Source: a virus
DNA length: 31,621 bases
Direction: 5' to 3' (one strand)
Virus record (IMG/VR): IMGVR_UViG_3300020373_000133
Coordinates: 1 to 31,621 of that record
Shown in pieces: positions 649 to 20,041 of this stretch. A program made the translations under genes and the position numbers. Each line of letters begins with the position of its first letter. Within the stretch, counting starts at the first letter, position 1. The notes under the pieces were generated by a model. That model was not told the origin of the DNA and ran no database searches. It was given only the letters and a program-made list of their open reading frames with translations.

Positions 649-3471
649 ATGAAAAACAAACGTAATCTAATCTCATCGGTAATGACGATTCTGATGCCTA
701 TGTTCCTTTTCGGACAAGAAGCAGTAATTGAAGAAAAGGTAAGCACAAGCATTGGTGGAGTTGTTTCTGATGAGTCAGGGGATCCATTAGCTGGAGCTAA
801 TGTAATAGTAGTAGGAACAGATTTAGGTACAGCTTCTTTAGAAGATGGTACTTATTCCATTGAGGTTGGTGACGGTTCTTATACAATTACGGCTCAAGTT
901 ATTGGTTACGAATCATCCACTAAATCTGTTGATGTTAGTGGTGATGTAACACTCGACTTTAGCCTAGCAGTTTCAGCAGTCGAGATGTCAGCGTTGGAAG
1001 TTTTGGCTTCCCGCGCAGATGCAAAGACACCTGTTGCTTATACAACGGTAGGAAAAGAAGTATTGGAATTTCGTCTTGGTTCACAAGATGTACCAATGTC
1101 ACTTAATACTACACCAAGTGTATATGCAACACAACAAGGTGGTGGTGCGGGGGATGCCCGTATCAATGTTCGAGGTTTTAATCAACGGAATGTAGCAGTA
1201 ATGATTAACGGAGTTCCACAAAATGATATGGAAAACGGTTGGGTCTATTGGTCTAACTGGGATGGTGTGGCAGATGCTGCTCAATCTATCCAGATGCAAC
1301 GTGGTCTTAGTGCTGTAAATTTAGCTGCCCCTTCCATTGGTGGAACTATGAATATTATAACTGATCCTACTTCCCATGAAAAGGGTGGTAAGTTCAAACA
1401 AGAAGCTGGTGCAGGAGGATTCATGAAGTCTACTATAAATTATAATAGTGGTTTGATGATGGATGATAAACTTGCATTAAGTGGTACAATAGTACGAAAA
1501 ACAGGTGATGGTGTCATAGACAAGACTTGGACGGACGCTTGGGCATATTATTTTGGAGCTAGTTATCAGGCAAATAAAGATAACAGATTCGAATTATATG
1601 CAATAGGTGCACCACAACGTCATGGACATAATCTATACAAACAGAATCTTGGTGCATACGATGCCGAATTTGCTGCAAGTGTAGATGGATATGATACTGA
1701 AGCACTTGGTGAAGATGGTAAGTTCAAAGATGTTGGTAGGTTTTTTAATCAGAACTGGTCACCAATTGATCCATCATATACTGGTAAACAATACTATTAT
1801 ATGTATGGTGCAAAAACGGTAGACAGACACGATCCTAACTTCCTTAATGAACGTGAAAACTTTTTTCACAAACCATTGGTTAACTTGAATCATTTTATGA
1901 CTATCAATGACAAAACAAGACTGAGTTCAGTATTGTATTGGAGTGGTGGTTCTGGTGGTGGTACAGGTACTTATGGTAGGATTCCTACCTTAGACGCTGA
2001 TGGTACATTAGGTGGAGAGAACTATAAGTTCTATTATGGTCGTAGTCCGTGGACCCGCGATTGGAATGCACTAGTAGCTATGAATAGCGGTGATTCTGAT
2101 ACTGTCTATGTAGACAAAAGAGTAATCACACGTACACATGGTGTTGATAATAATCAATCAGTAGGTATTTTGAGGAATAGTATTAATCGTCAAAATACAC
2201 TTGGTTTGATTTCTAAACTTAATTATGATTTAAGTGATGAACTTCAATTACAAGTTGGTATTGATTGGAGAACTGCTGGTATTGAACACGCACGTGAAGT
2301 TCGTGATTTACTTGGTGGTGATTATTATATGGATTATGCTGATGATAACGCACCAGATGGTAAAAGAGTTGAGTTAGGTGATATAATCGCTTATCATAAC
2401 TCAACTACAGTTGATTGGTTAGGTGGATATGTTCAAGGAGCATATAATTCAGGACCATTAAACGCTTATGGTATGTTAGGATTAACTCAAATTGCATATT
2501 CATACCAAGACCATTTTACAGTAGCAGATGAAAAGATCACAGCTGATCCTATCTCTACTATACAATGGAAAGGTGGAGCAATGTATGATGTTACTGATGA
2601 CGTTAGTGTTTTCGGTAATTTTGGTATAGTTGAAAAACCACCCATTATGGATAATGTGATTTACTTTGATGGAACTGTTGCTTCAGATCCTGCTAATGAA
2701 AGATTCATTAGTTCAGAAGCTGGTGTAAACTATTCTGCTGGTAACTACGCAGTTAAAGTATCTGCTTACAATACAGATTGGAAAGACAGAAATCTTACCA
2801 AGTCTGTAACAAGTGGACAAGGCTCAAGTGGTGATACTGATGTTATATTCCTAAGTGGAATTAATCAGAACCATAAAGGCGTTGAAGTTGAAGCTTCCAC
2901 ACAAATCCTAGATATGCTTAGGTTGGATGCTATAGTAAGTCTTGGTAAATGGCAGTTTGACGGTGATGCTGATGGTAATTATCAAGAAGATGAGTTCAAT
3001 GATGAAGGTCAAGTCATCGGACAGACAACTACACCTTATTCTTATGCATTGGATGGTTTGAATGTAGGTGATATGCCTCAGACATCTTACGCACTTGTTG
3101 GAACACTTACTCCCATAAAGGGATTACAGTTACAGGCAATATACAATCAGTATGATGATAATTATTCTGATTGGAGTCCTGGCGCAAGAGAGTATGATGG
3201 TTCAGACGCAGATGCAGATAGAGAACAAGTATGGAAAGCACCTGGATATTCCAAAGTGGATTTACATGCTTCATATAAACTACCAATTAGTGGATATGAT
3301 GTAACTTTATTTGGTCACGTGTTTAATGCAACTGATGCAATATTTGTTCAAGATGCAGTAGATCATAGTCAGTACAATAGCTATGGAGATAAAACTCACG
3401 CAGCTCATAATGCTGAAGTATTTCTTGGTACACCAAGATACTTTAATCTAGGGTTATCCCTAAATTTCTAA
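649..3471 (+). CDS. TonB-dependent outer-membrane receptor (phage-borne)
   Basis: This complete 940-residue protein is expected in the host outer membrane, where such receptors take up siderophores, vitamins or glycans using TonB energy. Residues 1-22 form a signal peptide (cut before Gln23, FG|QEA). Residues 35-108 form a carboxypeptidase-regulatory-like beta-sandwich (GGVVSDESGDPLAGANV, then GTY). Residues 111-120 sit where Bacteroidota receptors have their TonB-box-like segment. The plug spans about 124-240 and includes RINVRGFN, INGVPQNDMENGWVYWSNW and GGTMNII. The rest is the beta-barrel, ending in Phe (LGLSLNF) as outer-membrane proteins do. The size is normal and no frame is broken. 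There is no SusD-like partner nearby, so glycan uptake is not specifically supported. The gene has a strong SD and terminators on both sides and is surrounded by phage genes, so it looks acquired from a host and kept as an independent unit. The substrate cannot be read from the sequence. Confidence 0.93.
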   Translation: MKNKRNLISSVMTILMPMFLFGQEAVIEEKVSTSIGGVVSDESGDPLAGANVIVVGTDLGTASLEDGTYSIEVGDGSYTITAQVIGYESSTKSVDVSGDVTLDFSLAVSAVEMSALEVLASRADAKTPVAYTTVGKEVLEFRLGSQDVPMSLNTTPSVYATQQGGGAGDARINVRGFNQRNVAVMINGVPQNDMENGWVYWSNWDGVADAAQSIQMQRGLSAVNLAAPSIGGTMNIITDPTSHEKGGKFKQEAGAGGFMKSTINYNSGLMMDDKLALSGTIVRKTGDGVIDKTWTDAWAYYFGASYQANKDNRFELYAIGAPQRHGHNLYKQNLGAYDAEFAASVDGYDTEALGEDGKFKDVGRFFNQNWSPIDPSYTGKQYYYMYGAKTVDRHDPNFLNERENFFHKPLVNLNHFMTINDKTRLSSVLYWSGGSGGGTGTYGRIPTLDADGTLGGENYKFYYGRSPWTRDWNALVAMNSGDSDTVYVDKRVITRTHGVDNNQSVGILRNSINRQNTLGLISKLNYDLSDELQLQVGIDWRTAGIEHAREVRDLLGGDYYMDYADDNAPDGKRVELGDIIAYHNSTTVDWLGGYVQGAYNSGPLNAYGMLGLTQIAYSYQDHFTVADEKITADPISTIQWKGGAMYDVTDDVSVFGNFGIVEKPPIMDNVIYFDGTVASDPANERFISSEAGVNYSAGNYAVKVSAYNTDWKDRNLTKSVTSGQGSSGDTDVIFLSGINQNHKGVEVEASTQILDMLRLDAIVSLGKWQFDGDADGNYQEDEFNDEGQVIGQTTTPYSYALDGLNVGDMPQTSYALVGTLTPIKGLQLQAIYNQYDDNYSDWSPGAREYDGSDADADREQVWKAPGYSKVDLHASYKLPISGYDVTLFGHVFNATDAIFVQDAVDHSQYNSYGDKTHAAHNAEVFLGTPRYFNLGLSLNF

Positions 3472-3563: not shown

Positions 3564-4070
3564 ATGCAAAAGAATACTATAATTTTTGATTTAGATGGAA
3601 CTCTTGCTAATATTGATGCAAGGAAAAAGTTAGCAACCAAACCTAATGGTAAATTAGATTGGGATGTTTTCTTTTCGTCTACTAATATTTTGTTAGATGT
3701 TCCTAATGAACCAGTAGTAAAAATGGCTCAGATGTTTGCTGAGAACGGTTTTAATATTGTAATCTTTTCAGGTAGAAATGATAGAAGTTTTCATACTACC
3801 AGAAGTTGGTTATCCAGACATAGAATCCCATTTCAGAAGTTAGTTATGAGACCTGATAAGTTTCTTAATTGGGGCGAAAAGATCGCTAGTGGTAATATTG
3901 CCACTCAAGAAATGAGATTTATGCCTGATGAAATCTTAAAGAAACATATGTTAGATTTGTTTGTTGATATTGATGATGTTTTCTTAGTTGTTGATGATAG
4001 AAACAAAGTTGTAGATATGTGGAGATCATTAGGTTTAACCGTATTTCAAGTTGCTGAAGGTGATTTTTAA
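3564..4070 (+). CDS. Stand-alone polynucleotide 3'-phosphatase (T4 Pnkp phosphatase-domain type)
   Basis: The 168-residue HAD-superfamily protein corresponds in order and ending to the C-terminal phosphatase half of T4 polynucleotide kinase/phosphatase, which removes 3'-phosphates from cleaved RNA or DNA ends so that ligase can reseal them. HAD motif I is DLDGT (D9 is the nucleophile, D11 the acid/base), motif II is FSGR (S69, R71), Lys126-127 sit in the motif III area, and the acidic motif is VVDDR (D144, D145). The C-terminus, FQVAEGDF, resembles the T4 ending VASGDF as I recall it. The 5'-kinase half (P-loop GxxGxGKS) is absent. The first ATG must be the start because DLDGT begins at residue 9. 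The gene has its own promoter and is followed by tRNA-Tyr, which suggests tRNA repair. A general HAD phosphatase is the alternative. Confidence 0.8.
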   Translation: MQKNTIIFDLDGTLANIDARKKLATKPNGKLDWDVFFSSTNILLDVPNEPVVKMAQMFAENGFNIVIFSGRNDRSFHTTRSWLSRHRIPFQKLVMRPDKFLNWGEKIASGNIATQEMRFMPDEILKKHMLDLFVDIDDVFLVVDDRNKVVDMWRSLGLTVFQVAEGDF

Positions 4071-4075
4071 TTAAT

Positions 4076-4155
4076 GAGTGCGTAGTCCGATTTGGCAAGG
4101 AGAACGGCTGTAACCCGTTTTAACCATCAAGTAGGTTCGAATCCTACCGCACTCA
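4076..4155 (+). tRNA. tRNA-Tyr (anticodon GTA)
   Basis: Acceptor stem GAGTGCG (4076-4082) with CGCACTC (4148-4154) and discriminator A4155. A short D-stem starts at 4086 (TCC with GGA) with GG in the loop. Anticodon stem AACGG/CCGTT (4103-4107, 4115-4119) encloses loop CTGTAAC with anticodon GTA at 4110-4112. The variable arm is 11 bases (4120-4130), extended as expected for Tyr. T-stem GTAGG/CCTAC has loop TTCGAAT. CCA is not encoded. It starts 5 bases after the phosphatase stop codon and probably shares its transcript from promoter P1. It decodes UAU/UAC, both common in this AT-rich genome. Confidence 0.92.
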
Positions 4156-4176
4156 CAAAAAAACTAAAGAAAAAGC

Positions 4177-4206
4177 TTGACACGTATAGCTTTTTATGCT
4201 TATATT
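4177..4206 (+). promoter_or_regulatory. Sigma70-like promoter P2 for the endonuclease-like gene
   Basis: A perfect TTGACA (4177-4182), an 18-base spacer and TATATT (4201-4206). It shares AAGCTTGAC-x-CGTATAG and the spacer length with promoter P1. The predicted start of transcription is near 4213, only a few bases before ATG 4217, or about 16 bases before ATG 4229. Confidence 0.75.
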
Positions 4207-4216
4207 ATAGTAGATA

Positions 4217-4840
4217 ATGAGAGATAATATGAAAGATTTGACAAATAAAATTCAAAATTTAGGAGATCGTCGTTTTTGGGATGAATTTATTCCAGTATTT
4301 AATGACTATCTTGATCACCGTTTACGTGTAGAGAATAAGTTTAGTATTAAAAAATACAATTGTATTAAAGAGTACTATGATGGTAGTGGTTCAAATCAAT
4401 CTACTCAAGATTTTACAAAAGGTGTTGCAGGAACATTTGAATCTATCATTGAATTGATAGCTACTAATCATGCTATGGATTATTTTGCTTGTGCTTCTGA
4501 TGGTTTTGACGGTATTGATGTTGGTATAGAAAAAGAATTTAAATTAACAATGGGTTTAGGTAATTCTTGGACTGGTAATAAAAAGTCTGTTAAAGTACCT
4601 AATCACCTACTTGTAAAAATGGAAGTTGAAAATAATAAAATATCAAAGTTGGGTGTTTACGAAGCGAATTTGGATGAATGTGAAGATTCTTCTTGGTATA
4701 ATAATGGTGATGGTAAAAAAGGTAATTATACTACTTTAAGATTTCACAAAAATGATATAGATAACGTTTCTTGTATTTATGGTAACTTAATACCTAAACT
4801 TAAATGGTGTGGTGTAGAATTAGAAGAAATAACTTATTAA
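4217..4840 (+). CDS. Putative PD-(D/E)xK restriction-type endonuclease
   Basis: In this 207-residue protein, the segment GFDGIDVGIEKEFKL (97-110) gives an Asp (98 or 101) followed by E107-F-K109, the D...(D/E)xK core of PD-(D/E)xK nucleases. Glu75 in the preceding helix could be the usual N-terminal acidic residue. The stretch GNSWTGNKKSVKVPNHLLVK (115-134) and a second half with W160, repeated Gly/Lys and IYG (187-189) read like small type II restriction enzymes that I remember only in general outline. It would cut DNA in the cytoplasm; the site is unknown. No methylase is adjacent; a Dam-like methylase lies about 6 kb downstream. It is transcribed from its own promoter P2. The start could be 4217 or Met5 at 4229. 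Function is inferred from motif reading only and needs structure prediction. Confidence 0.5.
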   Translation: MRDNMKDLTNKIQNLGDRRFWDEFIPVFNDYLDHRLRVENKFSIKKYNCIKEYYDGSGSNQSTQDFTKGVAGTFESIIELIATNHAMDYFACASDGFDGIDVGIEKEFKLTMGLGNSWTGNKKSVKVPNHLLVKMEVENNKISKLGVYEANLDECEDSSWYNNGDGKKGNYTTLRFHKNDIDNVSCIYGNLIPKLKWCGVELEEITY

Positions 4841-6965: not shown

Positions 6966-7044
6966 ATTTATAGTAGTTTGTTTGTTGGCATATATTGCAT
7001 TTAAATTGTGGGATAATGATTATAAAAACACACCAAAGTTTTAA
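6958..7044 (+). CDS. 28-residue single-membrane-segment miniprotein
   Basis: The frame ATG 6958 to TAA 7042-7044 encodes MFEFIVVCLLAYIAFKLWD plus a short polar tail. Residues 2-17 are a plausible membrane helix. It overlaps the gene before it and shares its last base with the ATG of the deformylase gene (TAATG at 7044), as its neighbours do. Its short length keeps confidence moderate. Confidence 0.45.
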   Translation: MFEFIVVCLLAYIAFKLWDNDYKNTPKF

Positions 7045-7697
7045 TGACAAAAATAATTAATTGTTTCAAAGAAGATAATCCAGTTATAAATAAAAAACTG
7101 AGAAAGGTTACAATAGATGAAGGACTACATATTGCGAAAGATTTATTCAACATCCTCGCAGAACGGAAGGATGGTATTGGTCTTGCAGCTAACCAAGTGG
7201 GTATTGACGCCGCTGTTGCTGTGGTTAATGTTAGGGAGCCACTTATATTAATTAATCCTGTTATTAAAGAACAATGGGATGAAATTTCTTATTATGAAGG
7301 TTGCTTATCATATAAAGGTAAGGGAGTTGATACTAAAAGATTTAAGAATATAGTTATACATACTGAACAAGAAGAATGTGATTGGTATTTTAGTGGAGTA
7401 GATAACCCAACTAAAGGTAAAGGTAGTTGGGAACAAGAACAAAATATAAAAAAAGATAATGAATTAAGATTACTAGAATCTATTTGTGTCCAACACGAAA
7501 TAGACCATTTGAATGGAGTTACAATAATGGATAGAGAACATAAACTAGAACCTATTAAAGTTAAACAGAAATGGGGAAGAAATGAAATTGTCGGAATTAC
7601 GGATGGTGAAACTTATAAAGAAATTAAATACAAAAAAGCTAAACCACTTATAGATAGTGGTAAATGGGAAATCTATATTGGAGGACCTATAACTTAA
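7044..7697 (+). CDS. def: Peptide deformylase with insertion and C-terminal extension
   Basis: Removes the formyl group from the N-terminal Met of new proteins, using an active-site metal at the ribosome exit. All three family motifs are intact: GIGLAANQVG (44-53), EGCLS (85-89, metal ligand Cys87) and QHEIDH (150-155, metal ligands His151 and His155, catalytic Glu152). The gap between Cys87 and His151 is 64 residues, about 20 more than the 42 in the E. coli enzyme, because of an inserted Gly/Lys/Glu-rich stretch near 112-140 (GVDNPTKGKGSWEQEQN). About 45 residues follow the usual end of the catalytic core, containing EIKYKKAKPLIDSGKWEI, which I do not recognise. Phage deformylases are known from marine phages, where they are thought to help translate phage or photosystem proteins. 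The ATG overlaps the previous stop. Confidence 0.9.
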   Translation: MTKIINCFKEDNPVINKKLRKVTIDEGLHIAKDLFNILAERKDGIGLAANQVGIDAAVAVVNVREPLILINPVIKEQWDEISYYEGCLSYKGKGVDTKRFKNIVIHTEQEECDWYFSGVDNPTKGKGSWEQEQNIKKDNELRLLESICVQHEIDHLNGVTIMDREHKLEPIKVKQKWGRNEIVGITDGETYKEIKYKKAKPLIDSGKWEIYIGGPIT

Positions 7698-8119
7698 TGT
7701 TTGACAAAACAATAAAACTTACAGGAGAATATCCAAGTGATTTTAAACCAACAATGTCGGTAATGGAAATTCAGAAACACTTTAGTGCATATGAATTTCA
7801 TGACGCAAGAATGTTAGATGGATCAAAATGGGAATATACAAAAGAACATGAAGGTGATTTAGTTGTATTTAATGCTAATGTATTGATGCCTAATTATGGT
7901 AAAGTATGGTTTGGTGATTTAAATCTTACAGAAGATTATAAAACATTGAAAAAAATAGCGGAATCTTTAAATACAATTCTCTATATATTATGGGAGATGG
8001 ACGCGAGATTTGGAGAAGAAAATAAACCGATTAATGAATTGTTTGATAAAGCAGTATGGAATACTGAAGAAGAAAAACCAACTAATGAGTGGTATAGAAA
8101 GAAAGTTTCTAATAGATGA
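7697..8119 (+). CDS. Hypothetical 140-residue protein
   Basis: I choose ATG 7697, which overlaps the deformylase stop as TAATG; an in-frame ATG at 7664 lies inside that gene. The protein begins MFDKTIKLTGEYPSDFKP and contains YEFHDARMLDGSKWEYTK, DLVVFNANVLMPNYGKVWFG and YILWEMDARFGEE. It appears soluble and mixed alpha/beta. The FNANVL...KVWFGDLNLT portion looks like paired beta strands. No family or active-site motif is recognised. It overlaps guaB by ATGA at 8116, so it is translated with the enzyme genes. Confidence 0.7.
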   Translation: MFDKTIKLTGEYPSDFKPTMSVMEIQKHFSAYEFHDARMLDGSKWEYTKEHEGDLVVFNANVLMPNYGKVWFGDLNLTEDYKTLKKIAESLNTILYILWEMDARFGEENKPINELFDKAVWNTEEEKPTNEWYRKKVSNR

Positions 8120-9504
8120 GTAAATTATTAGCATATGATGATGTAAATATTGTTCCTAAATATTCAGAGTTGGTTTCTCGTAAAAGAGTTAATTTAAATA
8201 CTAAGTTAACAAAGACTTTAAATATTAAAATACCTATAGTATCTTCACCAATGGATACTGTAACTGAATATGATATGGCTTTGGAAATGATGAGTTTGGG
8301 TGGTGTTGGAGTTATACATCGTTTTATGAGCATTAAAGAACAATCTGATATAGTAAAAAAGTTAAATTTAAATAAAAAATTATGGGGTCAGTTTATATCA
8401 GAAAATGTAACTTTAGAGAATGAAGTAGATTCTATGTTTGCTTATGCAGGCACAATAATTGGTTCCAAAACTAAACCACTTGAGGAGTATACATTAAAAG
8501 AATGGAAATTTTTATTGGATGAAACATTAGATAATCATCCAATTACATTACATCTAAGTGCTACCAGGTCTTATTATAGGAAAATATTTAAACTAAAGTT
8601 TGGACATGATGTAGATCTTGATTACTTTGACGTACATAAACGACAGATAGATCTTAATTCTATAAAGGTAAGTAAACAGAAATTAAAACTTATAAAAGAC
8701 TTTTATAAAAGTATGAAAAGTTTACAAGAAAATATAAGTAAATTACCAATATGTGCCGCAATAGGTGTTAAAGGAGATTATTTAGAAAGGGCTGAAGAAT
8801 TAGTCAAAAATGGGTGTAATGTGTTACTTATAGATGTAGCGCATGGACATCATAAATATGTAGGAGAAGCCATTGAAGAAATCAAAACCAAGTTATCAGG
8901 AGTTGAAGTCATTGCGGGATCAGTTGCAACAGCAGAAGCGACTGAATACTTATGTGAAAAAGGAGCGGACTCGATTAGAGTCGGAATTGGAAATGGATCG
9001 TTATGTGAAACGAGAATTAGAACGGGTGTCGGAATCCCTCAAGTGTCTGCTATCCGTGATTGCGTCGCCGTTGCTGATGATTTTAGCACTCCCGTTATTG
9101 CTGATGGTGGTGTTCGCGATATTGGGGATGTGTGTAAAGGACTTGGTTGTGGGGCTGATACGATTATGTTGGGTTCCCTTTTATCTGGTACAAAAGAAAG
9201 TCCAGGAGAAATTGAAAAAGTAGGCAAATGGCCTAATGAACAGTTATATAAAAAATATAGAGGTTCCGCATCATTGGACTCTAAAAAATCAAGAGGTGAT
9301 AATAAAAATGTCGAAGGAAATCACAAAGTCATTCCCTATAAAGGGAAAGTCAAAAGAATCCTTAGAGATATACAAGAGGGACTTTGTAGTGCTTTCAGCT
9401 ATGTTGGTGCTAACAATATTTCTGAGTATCATTCTAAAGTAGAATTAATAGAGGTGACAAGTGCGGGAAATATTGAAGGAAAACCACACTTACTAGATAC
9501 TTAA
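8116..9504 (+). CDS. guaB: IMP dehydrogenase / GMP reductase family enzyme lacking CBS domains
   Basis: A 462-residue TIM-barrel enzyme that would convert IMP to XMP (or GMP to IMP if a reductase). It starts with YDDVNIVPKYSELVSR, then PIVSSPMDTVTE and GGVGVIHRF; after residue ~206 come AAIGVKGDYLERAEELV, LLIDVAHGHH, AGSVATAEA, the catalytic loop GIGNGSLCETRIRTGVGIPQ with Cys297, VIADGGVRDIGD and a late PYKGKVKRILRDIQEGL...SYVGA. Residues about 84-206 occupy the CBS (Bateman) position but show no CBS pattern; they are Lys-rich and unrecognised. The segment ILRDIQEGLCSAFSYVGA and the poorly matching flap (YRGSAS) lean toward GMP reductase, the DVAHGHH and AAIGVKGD parts toward dehydrogenase, so the reaction direction is unsettled. 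It overlaps the previous gene by ATGA. Confidence 0.88.
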   Translation: MSKLLAYDDVNIVPKYSELVSRKRVNLNTKLTKTLNIKIPIVSSPMDTVTEYDMALEMMSLGGVGVIHRFMSIKEQSDIVKKLNLNKKLWGQFISENVTLENEVDSMFAYAGTIIGSKTKPLEEYTLKEWKFLLDETLDNHPITLHLSATRSYYRKIFKLKFGHDVDLDYFDVHKRQIDLNSIKVSKQKLKLIKDFYKSMKSLQENISKLPICAAIGVKGDYLERAEELVKNGCNVLLIDVAHGHHKYVGEAIEEIKTKLSGVEVIAGSVATAEATEYLCEKGADSIRVGIGNGSLCETRIRTGVGIPQVSAIRDCVAVADDFSTPVIADGGVRDIGDVCKGLGCGADTIMLGSLLSGTKESPGEIEKVGKWPNEQLYKKYRGSASLDSKKSRGDNKNVEGNHKVIPYKGKVKRILRDIQEGLCSAFSYVGANNISEYHSKVELIEVTSAGNIEGKPHLLDT

Positions 9505-9698: not shown

Positions 9699-9908
9699 AT
9701 GAATACAGGTACAGTAAAATGGTTTGATGCTAAAAAAGGTTACGGTTTCGTAGCAGATTCAGCATCGACTGATACAGATTACTTTGTGCATTTCTCCGAA
9801 ATTCAAACAGATGGCTTTAGGACTTTAGAAGAAGGTCAAAAAGTTACGTTTGAAATCGGTGAAGGTGACAAAGGTCCAGTAGCTAAAAACGTTACAACAA
9901 CGGACTAA
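9699..9908 (+). CDS. Cold-shock protein (CspA family)
   Basis: A 69-residue single OB-fold protein that binds single-stranded RNA or DNA and melts RNA structure. It has the family start ([16 protein letters not shown]), RNP1 KGYGFV (13-18) and RNP2 YFVHF (28-32), the conserved EGQKVTFEI, and an ending GPVAKNV. The length is that of CspA. A weak ribosome site (AGGAA) precedes the ATG. It lies 7 bases upstream of the tmRNA, so the two are very likely in one transcript or the tmRNA is processed from it. An RNA chaperone next to tmRNA fits a translation-support role. Confidence 0.95.
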
Positions 9909-10975: not shown

Positions 10976-11845
10976 ATGATAAGTTATATCGGTGGTAAAA
11001 ACCGTATGGCTAAATGGATTGGGAATTATATTCCTAATGATATAGAAACATATGTAGAAGTTTTTGGTGGGGCATTTTGGGTATATGTCAATGGACAGGT
11101 ACATAAAAAACCCATTTTAAAAAATGTTATATATAATGATTTTAATAGATATATGACAAATTTATTTGCGTGTTGTAGAAATCCACAAGAATTTTTAAAG
11201 TCAATGGATGAAATTGTTGCACAAAATTCTGATTTATTCTATCAATATAAAACAGATGTATTTGAAAATAAAAATATTAAAGATATAGAAATACCAGATT
11301 ATGATTATGGTATGAAATATGCCTATATAGTTACACAAATATTTTCAGGGTTAAATCCAGAAAAAGGTAAATTTATAGATTTAAAAGGAAAGTATAGTTC
11401 TAAATTTGATGCATTTAGAAGAAGATTAAAAAATCCTGCGGTTATAGAAAAATTAAATAAAATAACTAATGTTGAAAATATGGATTGTGAAGAAGTTATT
11501 AAAAAATATGATAGTCCTAAAACATATTTTTATGTAGATCCACCTTATTGGAAAACAGAAAATTATTATTCATTACATGATTTTGATACAGATGATCATA
11601 AAAGATTAGCTGATGTATTAAAAAATATAGAAGGTAGATTTAGTTTGTCATATTATGATTTTGAGCAATTACATGATTGGTTTCCAGAAGATGAATATGA
11701 GTGGGAATTAAAAGATTTTGTAAAACCAGCTTCTGCACAAAAAGGCAAAAGCCAAAATAAAGGAACAGAGTTATTGATTATGAATTATCAATTAGAAAAT
11801 AAAAAAGAAAAAGTTAAAAATATAGAACATAAGTTTTGGAGTTAA
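10976..11845 (+). CDS. Dam-like D12-class N6-adenine DNA methyltransferase
   Basis: A 289-residue protein that would transfer a methyl group from SAM to adenine N6 in a short DNA site. The N-terminus SYIGGKNRMAKWI is the usual start of the D12 class, YVEVFGGAFWVYV is the SAM-binding motif (FxGxG variant, FGGAF), and the catalytic motif is DPPY (188-191) in YFYVDPPYWKTENYY. The middle region (INDF-like NVIYNDFNRYMTNLF) also fits the class. The target could be GATC, but GATC sites are still common in this window and the specificity is not proved. Possible roles are protection from host or phage nucleases (including the endonuclease-like gene at 4217) or marking of replication. The gene starts 13 bases after the previous stop. 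Confidence 0.88.
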   Translation: MISYIGGKNRMAKWIGNYIPNDIETYVEVFGGAFWVYVNGQVHKKPILKNVIYNDFNRYMTNLFACCRNPQEFLKSMDEIVAQNSDLFYQYKTDVFENKNIKDIEIPDYDYGMKYAYIVTQIFSGLNPEKGKFIDLKGKYSSKFDAFRRRLKNPAVIEKLNKITNVENMDCEEVIKKYDSPKTYFYVDPPYWKTENYYSLHDFDTDDHKRLADVLKNIEGRFSLSYYDFEQLHDWFPEDEYEWELKDFVKPASAQKGKSQNKGTELLIMNYQLENKKEKVKNIEHKFWS

Positions 11846-18127: not shown

Positions 18128-20041
18128 ATGCCGAATAATAAAGATATAAATTATATAGGAAGAGATTTTGCTAGTTTACGTCAAAATTTGATGGACTATG
18201 CTAAAACATATTTTCCTACAGCATATAAGGATTTTAATGAGGTTTCGCCTGGTATGATGTTTTTAGAATCAGTTGCGTATGTTGGTGATGTGATGGGTTT
18301 TTATACTGATGCGGTATTTAAAGAATCTTTATTACCTTATGCTGAAGAAAAAAATCAAATATATAATATAGCACAATTTATGGGATATAGACCAAGATTG
18401 ATATCCCCGTCATTAACTAAAATAAGATTTTCACAAGAGTTACCAGCTAGAGTTGATGATGATGCACAACCAGATTATGATTATGCGATGAATATAAAAT
18501 CTGATACTAGAGTTTTTTCTCCAGTACATGGCGTAGAGTTTAGATTATTGTCAGATTGTAATTTTAAAACTGGACAAGGTAGCCAAAGCTCACAAATAGA
18601 AAGAACTGGTAATTGGTCAACAGGTTTAAAATATTTTAGAATATATAAAACTGTAACTGCTATAAGTGGGTTTGCTAAAAAAGAAACTTTTTCTTTTGGG
18701 GGACCTCAAAAATATGATAAGCTAGTTTTATCTGAAGATAATGTAACAGAAATTTTATCAGTTACAGATAGTGATGGAAATACTTGGTATGAAGTTCCTT
18801 ACTTGGCACAAGATATGGTTTTTTCTGAATTTCAAAATTTAGCTGAAAATGACAGTTCTCTTGTTCAATATGATGAAACTAATCCTTATATTATAAAAAG
18901 ATTAAAAACATCTAAAAGATTTAGAACGTATGTAAGGTCTGATAAAAAGACAGAAATAAGATTTGGAGCTGGAACAGAAGTAACTCCAGATGAAGAATTA
19001 ATTCCAAATCCAGATAATGTAGGTTCAAATTTACCAGGATCTCCATCTAAATTAGGAATTGCATTTGATCCTAATAATTTTACAAATACCAGGGCTTACG
19101 GTGAAGCACCATCTAATACTACTTTAACTATACATTACGCATATGGTGGAGGATCAAAACATAATGTTAGGTCAGGGGATATAAATACTTTTGCTAGTAA
19201 AGTTCTATCATCATTTGCAGGAAATTTAGATTCTACAAAATTAGCTCGCGTTAGAAAATCAATTAACTTAACAAATGTAGAACCATCATCAGGAGGAATG
19301 GATGCAGAATCAAATGAAGAAATAAGACAAAATGCATTAGGTCATTTTCAGGCACAAGCTAGAATGGTAACAAGAGATGATGTTATTACTAGAGTGTATG
19401 CGTTACCAGAGAGATATGGTAATATTGCTAAAGCTTATGTTGTACAAGATGAACAAATTTCTACTCCCGCTGGAGAAAAACCCAAATTCGAAAAAAATCA
19501 GTTAGGTTTGAATTTATATACGTTAGGATATAATAATAATAAAAAATTAGTAAAATTAAATACAGTTACTAAGAATAATTTAAAAACTTATTTAGGTAGA
19601 TTTCGTATGTTAACTGATGCAATTAATATTAAAGATGCTTATATAATAAACATAGGAATTAGATTTGATATTTTAGTAAAACGTGGATATAATAAAAATG
19701 AAGTTTTATTAAGGGCAATTGCTAAAATGAGAGAATTTTGGAATAGTGATAATTGGCAAATAAATCAACCTATTGTAATAGCAGAATCAGTTGCAGAATT
19801 GTTAAAGGTAGAAGGAGTGCTTGGAGTTGAAAAGCCATCGGATAGTAATCCATTAGGTACTAATTTAGCTATAACAAACAAATATGATACTTCTAAGGGA
19901 TATTCTGGCAATGTATATGATTTGGCAGACTCAATGGTACTTAAGAATGGAGTTATTTATCCATCAAAAGACCCATCAATATTTGAAGTAAAATTTCCAG
20001 AACAAGATATAATCGGTAGGGTAATAGGAGATATAGCATAA
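18128..20041 (+). CDS. 6: Baseplate wedge protein gp6 (baseplate J family)
   Basis: A 637-residue protein, near the T4 gp6 length (660). The N-terminus contains DINYIGRDFASLRQNLMDYAKTYFP, EVSPGMMFLESVAYVGDVMGFYTD and AQFMGYRPR, the typical start of gp6/J proteins; the later region has SGGMDAESNEEIRQNALGHF, RMVTRDDVITRVYALPERYGNI and a C-terminal wedge domain. It forms the inner ring of the baseplate. A ribosome site AAGGAGAA lies just upstream of ATG 18128. Its stop overlaps the next start (TAATG). Confidence 0.9.
   Translation: MPNNKDINYIGRDFASLRQNLMDYAKTYFPTAYKDFNEVSPGMMFLESVAYVGDVMGFYTDAVFKESLLPYAEEKNQIYNIAQFMGYRPRLISPSLTKIRFSQELPARVDDDAQPDYDYAMNIKSDTRVFSPVHGVEFRLLSDCNFKTGQGSQSSQIERTGNWSTGLKYFRIYKTVTAISGFAKKETFSFGGPQKYDKLVLSEDNVTEILSVTDSDGNTWYEVPYLAQDMVFSEFQNLAENDSSLVQYDETNPYIIKRLKTSKRFRTYVRSDKKTEIRFGAGTEVTPDEELIPNPDNVGSNLPGSPSKLGIAFDPNNFTNTRAYGEAPSNTTLTIHYAYGGGSKHNVRSGDINTFASKVLSSFAGNLDSTKLARVRKSINLTNVEPSSGGMDAESNEEIRQNALGHFQAQARMVTRDDVITRVYALPERYGNIAKAYVVQDEQISTPAGEKPKFEKNQLGLNLYTLGYNNNKKLVKLNTVTKNNLKTYLGRFRMLTDAINIKDAYIINIGIRFDILVKRGYNKNEVLLRAIAKMREFWNSDNWQINQPIVIAESVAELLKVEGVLGVEKPSDSNPLGTNLAITNKYDTSKGYSGNVYDLADSMVLKNGVIYPSKDPSIFEVKFPEQDIIGRVIGDIA

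What the first reader, a model, noticed from the sequence alone, without database searches (positions are those of the whole stretch)
4217..4840. Possible solitary restriction-type endonuclease in a phage
GFDGIDV...EKEFK plus the GNSWTGNKKSVKVPNHLLVK region look like a PD-(D/E)xK type II enzyme. It has its own early promoter and no adjacent methylase, so it could attack host or competing phage DNA, with the phage protected by the Dam-like methylase at 10976 or by modified bases.
Basis: inference. Interest (0 to 1): 0.55.

Follow-up and report, generated by a model that had tools for sequence, protein, structure and literature searches.

The report
Solitary phage restriction-type DNA-cutting enzyme
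A marine virus of bacteria carries a lone gene that looks like a restriction-type DNA-cutting enzyme; in viruses of ocean cyanobacteria its distant relatives sit beside a DNA-marking gene, so those viruses may carry a cut-and-protect weapon of which this virus shows only the cutting half.

Summary
It matches PHROG_11812 (no function; E 1e-8) and an unnamed cyanophage family (window-free profile 44.2 bits; best of 1,000 shuffles 7.5). D98, E107 and K109 are invariant in 21 of 21 aligned rows; D101 is not. A homologue's AlphaFold model (pLDDT 85) has type II restriction enzymes as nearest solved folds: NaeI (Z 10.1), then 3ndh, BglI, SwaI, DpnI, EcoRV. The window protein's own model is poor (pLDDT 56) and matches nothing. 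T4-like cyanophages thus seem to carry a type II restriction-modification pair; the window has only the nuclease half in its 31.6 kb. Its Dam-like methylase is another class, so that protection is unsupported. CCGG is absent from the window (17 expected), but 9 of 10 nuclease-free cyanophages lack it too: not diagnostic. Activity, target and self-protection are untested.

The parts
4217..4840 (+). Solitary PD-(D/E)xK restriction-endonuclease-like gene, 207 aa; Met5 (ATG at 4229) is an alternative start
   Evidence: ORF list; PHROG_11812 E 1.1e-8; window-free profile E 3.5e-13; homologue fold
4508..4510 (+). Codon of D98, predicted metal-binding Asp
   Evidence: invariant in 10 of 10 and 21 of 21 rows; role inferred
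4535..4543 (+). Codons of E107-F108-K109, the ExK motif
   Evidence: E and K invariant in 10 of 10 and 21 of 21 rows; role inferred
4571..4618 (+). TGN..S.K.......K stretch (residues 119-134), invariant family signature, possibly DNA contact or active-site loop
   Evidence: role inferred
4177..4206 (+). Sigma-70-like promoter candidate (TTGACA-18-TATATT)
   Evidence: total number of such sites is not above chance
4076..4156 (+). tRNA-Tyr (gta) just upstream, marks a variable tRNA-bearing stretch
   Evidence: relatives L038 and L039 have a tRNA-Cys in the stretch between the kinase gene and the homologue of ORF 5801 and no nuclease there
3564..4070 (+). Polynucleotide kinase/phosphatase-like neighbour, conserved left flank
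   Evidence: PHROG_505 E 8.5e-34; syntenic in L038 and L039
4840..5202 (+). Downstream gene whose ATG overlaps the nuclease stop codon (TAATG); unknown function; a homologue is present without the nuclease in L038
   Evidence: PHROG_818 E 2.1e-14; sequence; 31% homologue in L038
10976..11845 (+). D12-class (Dam-like) adenine methyltransferase; not the family's usual partner
   Evidence: PF02086 E 2.1e-22; phrog_56 E 3.8e-44

Best explanation
The gene encodes a diverged, solitary member of a phage family of small EcoRV-like PD-(D/E)xK type II restriction endonucleases. Its relatives in T4-like cyanophages form, with an overlapping downstream beta-class DNA methyltransferase gene, a two-gene type II restriction-modification cassette. 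The enzyme would act as a dimer, bind one short site, use D98, E107 and K109 with Mg2+ to cut both strands, and spare DNA that is modified at, or lacks, that site. In a cyanophage the methylated phage genome would be spared while the unmethylated host chromosome (or an unmethylated rival phage) is cut. In the window phage the nuclease sits alone as an accessory gene in a variable, tRNA-bearing stretch; the phage must avoid self-cutting by lacking sites, by a methylase elsewhere in its unsequenced genome, or by other base modification. Shown here: the family link, invariant residues, the fold of a homologue, the gene pairing, absence of the partner in 31.6 kb. Inferred: cleavage, dimer, target, biological role, self-protection.
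For: Window-free profile 44.2 bits, next frame 5.2, best of 1,000 shuffles 7.5; PHROG_11812 E 1.1e-8. D98/E107/K109 invariant in 21 of 21 rows. Homologue L021 (P-TIM40 protein): pLDDT 85.3, pTM 0.83, D90 just before a strand and E99/K101 in the next one. Foldseek against the PDB: of the 50 rows shown (595 at E <= 10), 42 are type II restriction enzymes, many of them repeat EcoRV entries, one is the homing endonuclease I-Ssp6803I, seven are unrelated. VIA-align: NaeI Z 10.1 (rmsd 3.6, 153 aligned), 3ndh (ThaI by recall) 7.4, BglI 7.2, SwaI 7.0, DpnI 6.8, EcoRV 5.3; 49 of the 50 rows shown are restriction or R-M enzymes, one is Hjc. The MTase gene start overlaps the nuclease gene end by 8, 17 or 20 nt in 37 of 37 loci; the 17 phage records with the nuclease are exactly the 17 with the >=76%-identical MTase. 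The MTase is N6_N4_Mtase (E 4e-40) with PDB relatives such as the PvuII, RsrI, MboIIA and DpnA MTases. The close relatives L038 and L039 lack the gene at the same spot, and no frame of the whole records G001-G005 encodes it.
Against: The window protein's own model is poor (pLDDT 56.1) and finds no restriction enzyme. The best Foldseek PDB E-value is only 2.1e-3, none at or below 0.001; Z is below 8 apart from NaeI, a range the tool calls common. No Pfam, NCBIfam or PADLOC nuclease model matches, and PADLOC's best model for the MTase is 'orphan methyltransferase'. A solitary nuclease without a visible antidote is a liability and could be inactive. Many of the 37 loci and 17 records are near-identical; there are about seven named cultured phages.
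Confidence: 0.7

Rival explanations
1. Decayed restriction enzyme that lost its methylase and is no longer active.
For: Only 24-31% identity to the paired family, a few short gaps against it between the ExK strand and the C-terminus, and no partner in 31.6 kb.
Against: Open frame kept, the D, E, K and signature residues all kept, identical in a second contig.
Confidence: 0.15
2. Modification-dependent nuclease (DpnI/BisI-like type IIM): it cuts DNA methylated by the host or a rival, so it needs no partner methylase.
For: DpnI (Z 6.8), Eco15I and NhoI are among the fold neighbours; would explain solitude in the window.
Against: In 37 of 37 other loci the gene overlaps a methyltransferase gene, which could make a methyl-dependent cutter suicidal; NaeI ranks above DpnI by more than 3 Z units.
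Confidence: 0.06
3. Free-standing homing endonuclease that spreads its own gene, using a PD-(D/E)xK core (as I-Ssp6803I does, by recall).
For: I-Ssp6803I is in the Foldseek list (E 3.3e-2); the gene is a patchy accessory gene near a tRNA gene.
Against: Linkage to a methyltransferase in 37 of 37 other loci and NaeI as best fold are not homing features; L038 and L039 carry other genes at the spot rather than a clean empty site.
Confidence: 0.04
4. Host-DNA-degrading or repair nuclease of the phage replication machinery without real sequence specificity (a DenA- or Holliday-resolvase-like role).
For: PD-(D/E)xK folds serve such roles (general knowledge); archaeal Hjc appears at Z 4.3.
Against: Accessory distribution: a profile found it in none of 10 other cyanomyovirus records, none of 13 further relatives of the window phage and none of the frames of G001-G005 (several of these are fragments); the MTase linkage.
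Confidence: 0.05

Closest known systems
NaeI (endonuclease domain) and other EcoRV-like PD-(D/E)xK type II REases (3ndh = ThaI by recall, EcoRV, SwaI, DpnI, PvuII, HincII)
   Same: Predicted fold of a family member (NaeI Z 10.1 over 153 residues); spacing of D, E and K (9 and 2 residues) equals that of NaeI D86/D95/K97, which I recall and did not see in a call
   Different: 9% identity to NaeI in the structural alignment, which covers only NaeI residues 10-170 of a 304-residue chain; target unknown
PHROG_11812 and the cyanophage homologues (Syn9 gp61, P-TIM40 gp059, S-MbCM6_045, S-H35 gp034, S-RIM4, S-MS29, Syn10)
   Same: Homologous over most of the protein; same invariant residues
   Different: The cyanophage genes overlap a beta-class MTase gene; the window gene is alone. 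That the cyanophage proteins are PHROG_11812 members was not tested
Chlorovirus and marseillevirus R-M systems (CviAI and others)
   Same: Virus-borne nuclease plus methylase, proposed to attack host DNA (chloroviruses) or competitors (marseilleviruses) (PMC7253447, passages read)
   Different: Viruses of eukaryotes; no homology was tested here; the window shows no cognate methylase
HHPV4I, m6A-dependent nuclease of an archaeal virus
   Same: Virus-encoded restriction enzyme (PMC10101028, start of abstract and passages)
   Different: Has SRA and winged-helix domains by its abstract and needs methylated DNA; not this family

Membership tests
EcoRV-like PD-(D/E)xK type II restriction endonuclease | D ... 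(D/E)xK residues present and conserved | tested here: met
   D98, E107, K109 invariant in 10 of 10 and 21 of 21 rows
EcoRV-like PD-(D/E)xK type II restriction endonuclease | PD-(D/E)xK core fold, family homologue | tested here: met
   P-TIM40-type homologue, pLDDT 85; best solved folds are type II REases, NaeI Z 10.1
EcoRV-like PD-(D/E)xK type II restriction endonuclease | PD-(D/E)xK core fold, window protein itself | tested here: inconclusive
   pLDDT 56.1; no meaningful match
EcoRV-like PD-(D/E)xK type II restriction endonuclease | Mg2+-dependent cutting at a specific short site | not testable with these tools
   needs purified protein
Type II restriction-modification system | Nuclease gene paired with a DNA methyltransferase gene, cyanophage homologues | tested here: met
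   37 of 37 loci, overlapping genes; in L123 the MTase frame is interrupted. That the MTase protects against the nuclease is not tested
Type II restriction-modification system | Nuclease gene paired with a DNA methyltransferase gene, window | tested here: not met
   No PF01555 in the 31.6 kb or in the 24.7-kb twin contig; a D12 MTase lies 6 kb away. The genome is partial, so the phage may hold one elsewhere; the window gene is filed as a solitary nuclease, not as an R-M system
PHROG_11812 | Profile match over most of the protein | tested here: met
   E 1.1e-8, residues 51-201 of 207
Free-standing homing endonuclease | Cuts the empty allele of its own insertion site | not testable with these tools
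   relatives L038 and L039 hold other genes at the spot

The most novel reading that the evidence does not exclude
T4-like marine phages carry complete type II restriction-modification operons as offensive weapons against host and rival DNA, and the window phage has turned one into a one-gene weapon: it keeps only the nuclease and is immune because its genome has been purged of the target (candidate CCGG, 0 observed against 17 expected), rival phages' nucleases being also a reason why marine cyanophages lack CCGG.
Probability: 0.12. Interest if true: 0.85.

Novelty: new variant of a known kind. Interest (0 to 1): 0.58.

Why it matters
The 'hypothetical protein + DNA methyltransferase' pair of named phages such as Syn9, P-TIM40 and S-MbCM6 can be cloned and assayed at once. 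If it is a true restriction-modification pair, cyanophages bring their own restriction system into marine picocyanobacteria, a way to destroy host DNA or exclude competitors that the passages I read describe for chloroviruses and marseilleviruses. A solitary relative with an intact active-site motif poses a sharp question: how does a virus carry a restriction enzyme without its antidote?

Tried and rejected
CCGG as the target. The window lacks CCGG entirely (0 against 17.4 expected; the only one of 256 tetramers with no copy), and 11 of 12 nuclease-bearing records sampled, the window included, have none (the twelfth, Syn9, has 1 against 96 expected). This looked decisive until the control: 9 of 10 nuclease-free cyanomyoviruses also have none in 60-kb samples (S-SM2 is the exception, 15 against 42). 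Among 18 nuclease-free non-cyanophage records (5 whole, 13 sampled; absence of the nuclease), 3 have none; of the 13 with 45% or more identity at the kinase gene, 0 of 13, though some of these are near-duplicates. So the zero is unusual for the window's own kin but common in cyanophages; kept only as a hypothesis.

Dam-like methylase as antidote: no link found; the family's partner is beta-class. GATC is 70 against 104 expected in the window: reduced, not absent.

Bacterial source: of 395 Bacteroidota genomes one had a hit, the Nonlabens assembly, whose contig looks like a cyanophage; the genome-contig scan gave the same single contig; no plasmid match. Known specificity through the MTase: three plasmid and two phage MTase relatives opened had no annotated restriction nuclease directly beside them, but many neighbours are hypothetical and a putative VRR-nuclease lies three genes away in phage 1N2-2. 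The first structure model and its searches led nowhere.

Fold families that did not appear in the lists are not excluded by that.

Full report
The observation. The 207-aa ORF at 4217-4840 is intact and is encoded identically in another IMG/VR contig. It lies 3' of a tRNA-Tyr gene at 4076-4156 and of a polynucleotide kinase/phosphatase-like gene (PHROG_505), in a 31.6-kb phage record. A baseplate-wedge-like protein of the record (18128-20041) is nearest to Microcystis phage Mel-JY01 (44.7%), with Flavobacterium phages immuto at 38.5%. The next gene's ATG at 4840 overlaps the nuclease stop. The promoter at 4177-4206 is a good consensus match (11 of 12), but the number of such sites in the region is what shuffles give (27 against 27.3).

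What it is related to. No Pfam, NCBIfam or PADLOC match and one PDB-sequence hit at E 1.4, an antibody chain, taken as chance. PHROG_11812, function unknown, matches at E 1.1e-8. tblastn with the window protein gives only weak hits, to nine cyanophage records (E about 0.1); from these the family was built up with P-TIM40 and Syn9 proteins and IMG/VR contigs. To avoid circularity, a profile of 20 homologues without the window was run against the 383 window frames of 30 or more residues: this ORF scored 44.2 bits (E 3.5e-13), the next 5.2, and the best of 1,000 shuffled copies 7.5. In that alignment and, D98, E107 and K109 pair with the family's D, E and K.

Active site and fold. D98, E107, K109, T119-G120-N121, S124, K126 and K134 are invariant in 10 of 10 rows and in 21 of 21 distinct rows; D101 is not. 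AlphaFold on the window-led alignment of 18 rows was poor (pLDDT 56) and gave no restriction enzyme. With a cyanophage homologue (identical to the P-TIM40 gp059 protein) leading 21 rows it gave pLDDT 85.3, pTM 0.83, with D90 just before a strand and E99/K101 in the next strand. Foldseek's best PDB hit is NaeI (E 2.1e-3; no hit at 0.001 or below); 42 of the 50 rows shown are type II restriction enzymes (EcoRV many times, 3ndh, Eco15I, DpnI, NhoI, PvuII), one is I-Ssp6803I, seven are unrelated. VIA-align on Foldseek's 1000 best: NaeI Z 10.1, rmsd 3.6, 153 aligned; 3ndh (ThaI by recall) 7.4; BglI 7.2; SwaI 7.0; DpnI 6.8; BcnI 5.4; EcoRV 5.3; NlaIV 5.3; MvaI 5.3; HincII 5.0; 49 of the 50 rows shown are restriction or R-M enzymes and one is Hjc. 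Only NaeI stands above the Z 7-8 that the tool calls common, but the list is nearly all one functional class. In BFVD 11 viral models match at E 0.001 or better, ten of them without a name or 'uncharacterized'.

The missing partner. In 34 of 34 loci L003-L036 a beta-class methyltransferase ORF follows, and in 37 of 37 (L003-L036, L121-L123, that is every fetched homologous locus other than the window and its twin contig) its start overlaps the nuclease gene's end: start minus end is -16 in 17, -19 in 12, -7 in 8. In L123 the methyltransferase frame is interrupted after 34 codons. The loci include near-duplicates; the seven named phages opened are S-MbCM6, P-TIM40, S-MS29, Syn9, S-H35, S-RIM4 and Syn10. 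Of 76 phage records with this methyltransferase at E 1e-30, 17 have 76% or more identity and the other 59 are below 60% (60 of 76 were listed); the 17 are exactly the 17 records with the nuclease at E 0.01. So the wider methyltransferase family occurs without this nuclease (PADLOC's best model for it is 'orphan methyltransferase'), but this subfamily came with the nuclease every time. That is what a type II restriction-modification operon looks like. Sullivan et al. (PMC3037559, passages) list an N6A-methylase among genes shared by many cyanophages; whether it is this gene I did not test, and the word 'restriction' was not found in that main text. Motif IV of the methyltransferase, TSPPY, is of the type I recall as typical of N4-cytosine enzymes; its target base is not settled here.

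In the window the partner is absent: no PF01555 match in G000 or in the twin contig G006. The D12 methylase at 10976 (PF02086 E 2.1e-22) is another class; of five relatives searched one, G004, has a 58% homologue. The close relatives L038 and L039 keep flanking genes but have other small genes and a tRNA-Cys instead of the nuclease; no frame of the whole records G001-G005 encodes it and a profile found it in none of 13 further relatives. So the nuclease is an accessory gene in a variable, tRNA-bearing stretch.

Target site. The window has no CCGG (17.4 expected). Nuclease-bearing cyanophages also have none in 40- to 120-kb samples (10 of 11; Syn9 has 1 against 96 expected). But nuclease-free cyanomyoviruses lack it too (9 of 10), so in cyanophages the loss does not follow the nuclease. 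Among the window's nuclease-free kin, 3 of 18 lack it, and 0 of the 13 closest. Loss of whole palindromes is common in this kin (GATC 0 against 282 in G004; ACGT 0 against 83 in G005), and avoidance of recognition sites is described for prokaryotic viruses (PMC6286503, start of abstract and passages). CCGG is therefore a guess worth one assay, no more.

How it most likely works. As a cutter of unmodified DNA: in cyanophages the pair would cut host or rival DNA while the phage's own methylated DNA is spared. Precedents are chloroviruses (use of the host nucleotide pool) and marseilleviruses (weapon against competitors) (PMC7253447, passages); PMC10101028 (passages) says restriction enzymes are found in prokaryotes, with those of some chlorella and giant viruses as exceptions. 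For the solitary window enzyme I give 0.7 to a restriction-type nuclease of this family, 0.15 to an inactive relic, and 0.15 to modification-dependent, homing or repair roles together. No step of activity has been tested.

Noticed in passing
W01-W15 and G402-G407 samples: CCGG is missing from nearly all marine cyanomyovirus records sampled (10 of 11 with and 9 of 10 without the nuclease). Some lack another palindrome altogether in 60 kb: S-ShM2 no TTAA (214 expected), Syn1 no GTAC (175), S-SM2 no CTAG (93).
   Followed up: partly
L023 (NZ_RMVE01000006.1): The 188-kb contig in the Nonlabens xiamenensis assembly encodes a nuclease 97.6% identical to P-TIM40's and the identical methyltransferase; the contig is also about the size of the P-TIM40 genome, so it is probably a cyanophage contaminant.
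   Followed up: partly
window 649-3471: A 940-aa TonB-dependent receptor (plug, barrel and CarboxypepD_reg domains) lies beside phage genes; a relative (L038) has an 80% homologue at the same place.
   Followed up: partly
G004 (119-kb relative), G002, G003, G005: GATC is absent or nearly so (0 against 282, 0 against 211, 0 against 116, 2 against 276 expected), although G004 encodes a 58% homologue of the window's Dam-like methylase.
   Followed up: no
L123:3605-4392: The methyltransferase frame next to an open nuclease frame is interrupted after 34 codons: a possible second nuclease without a working partner, or a sequencing error.
   Followed up: no
window 7044-7697, 8116-9504, 9699-9908: Peptide deformylase, IMP dehydrogenase and cold-shock protein genes in the phage record.
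   Followed up: no
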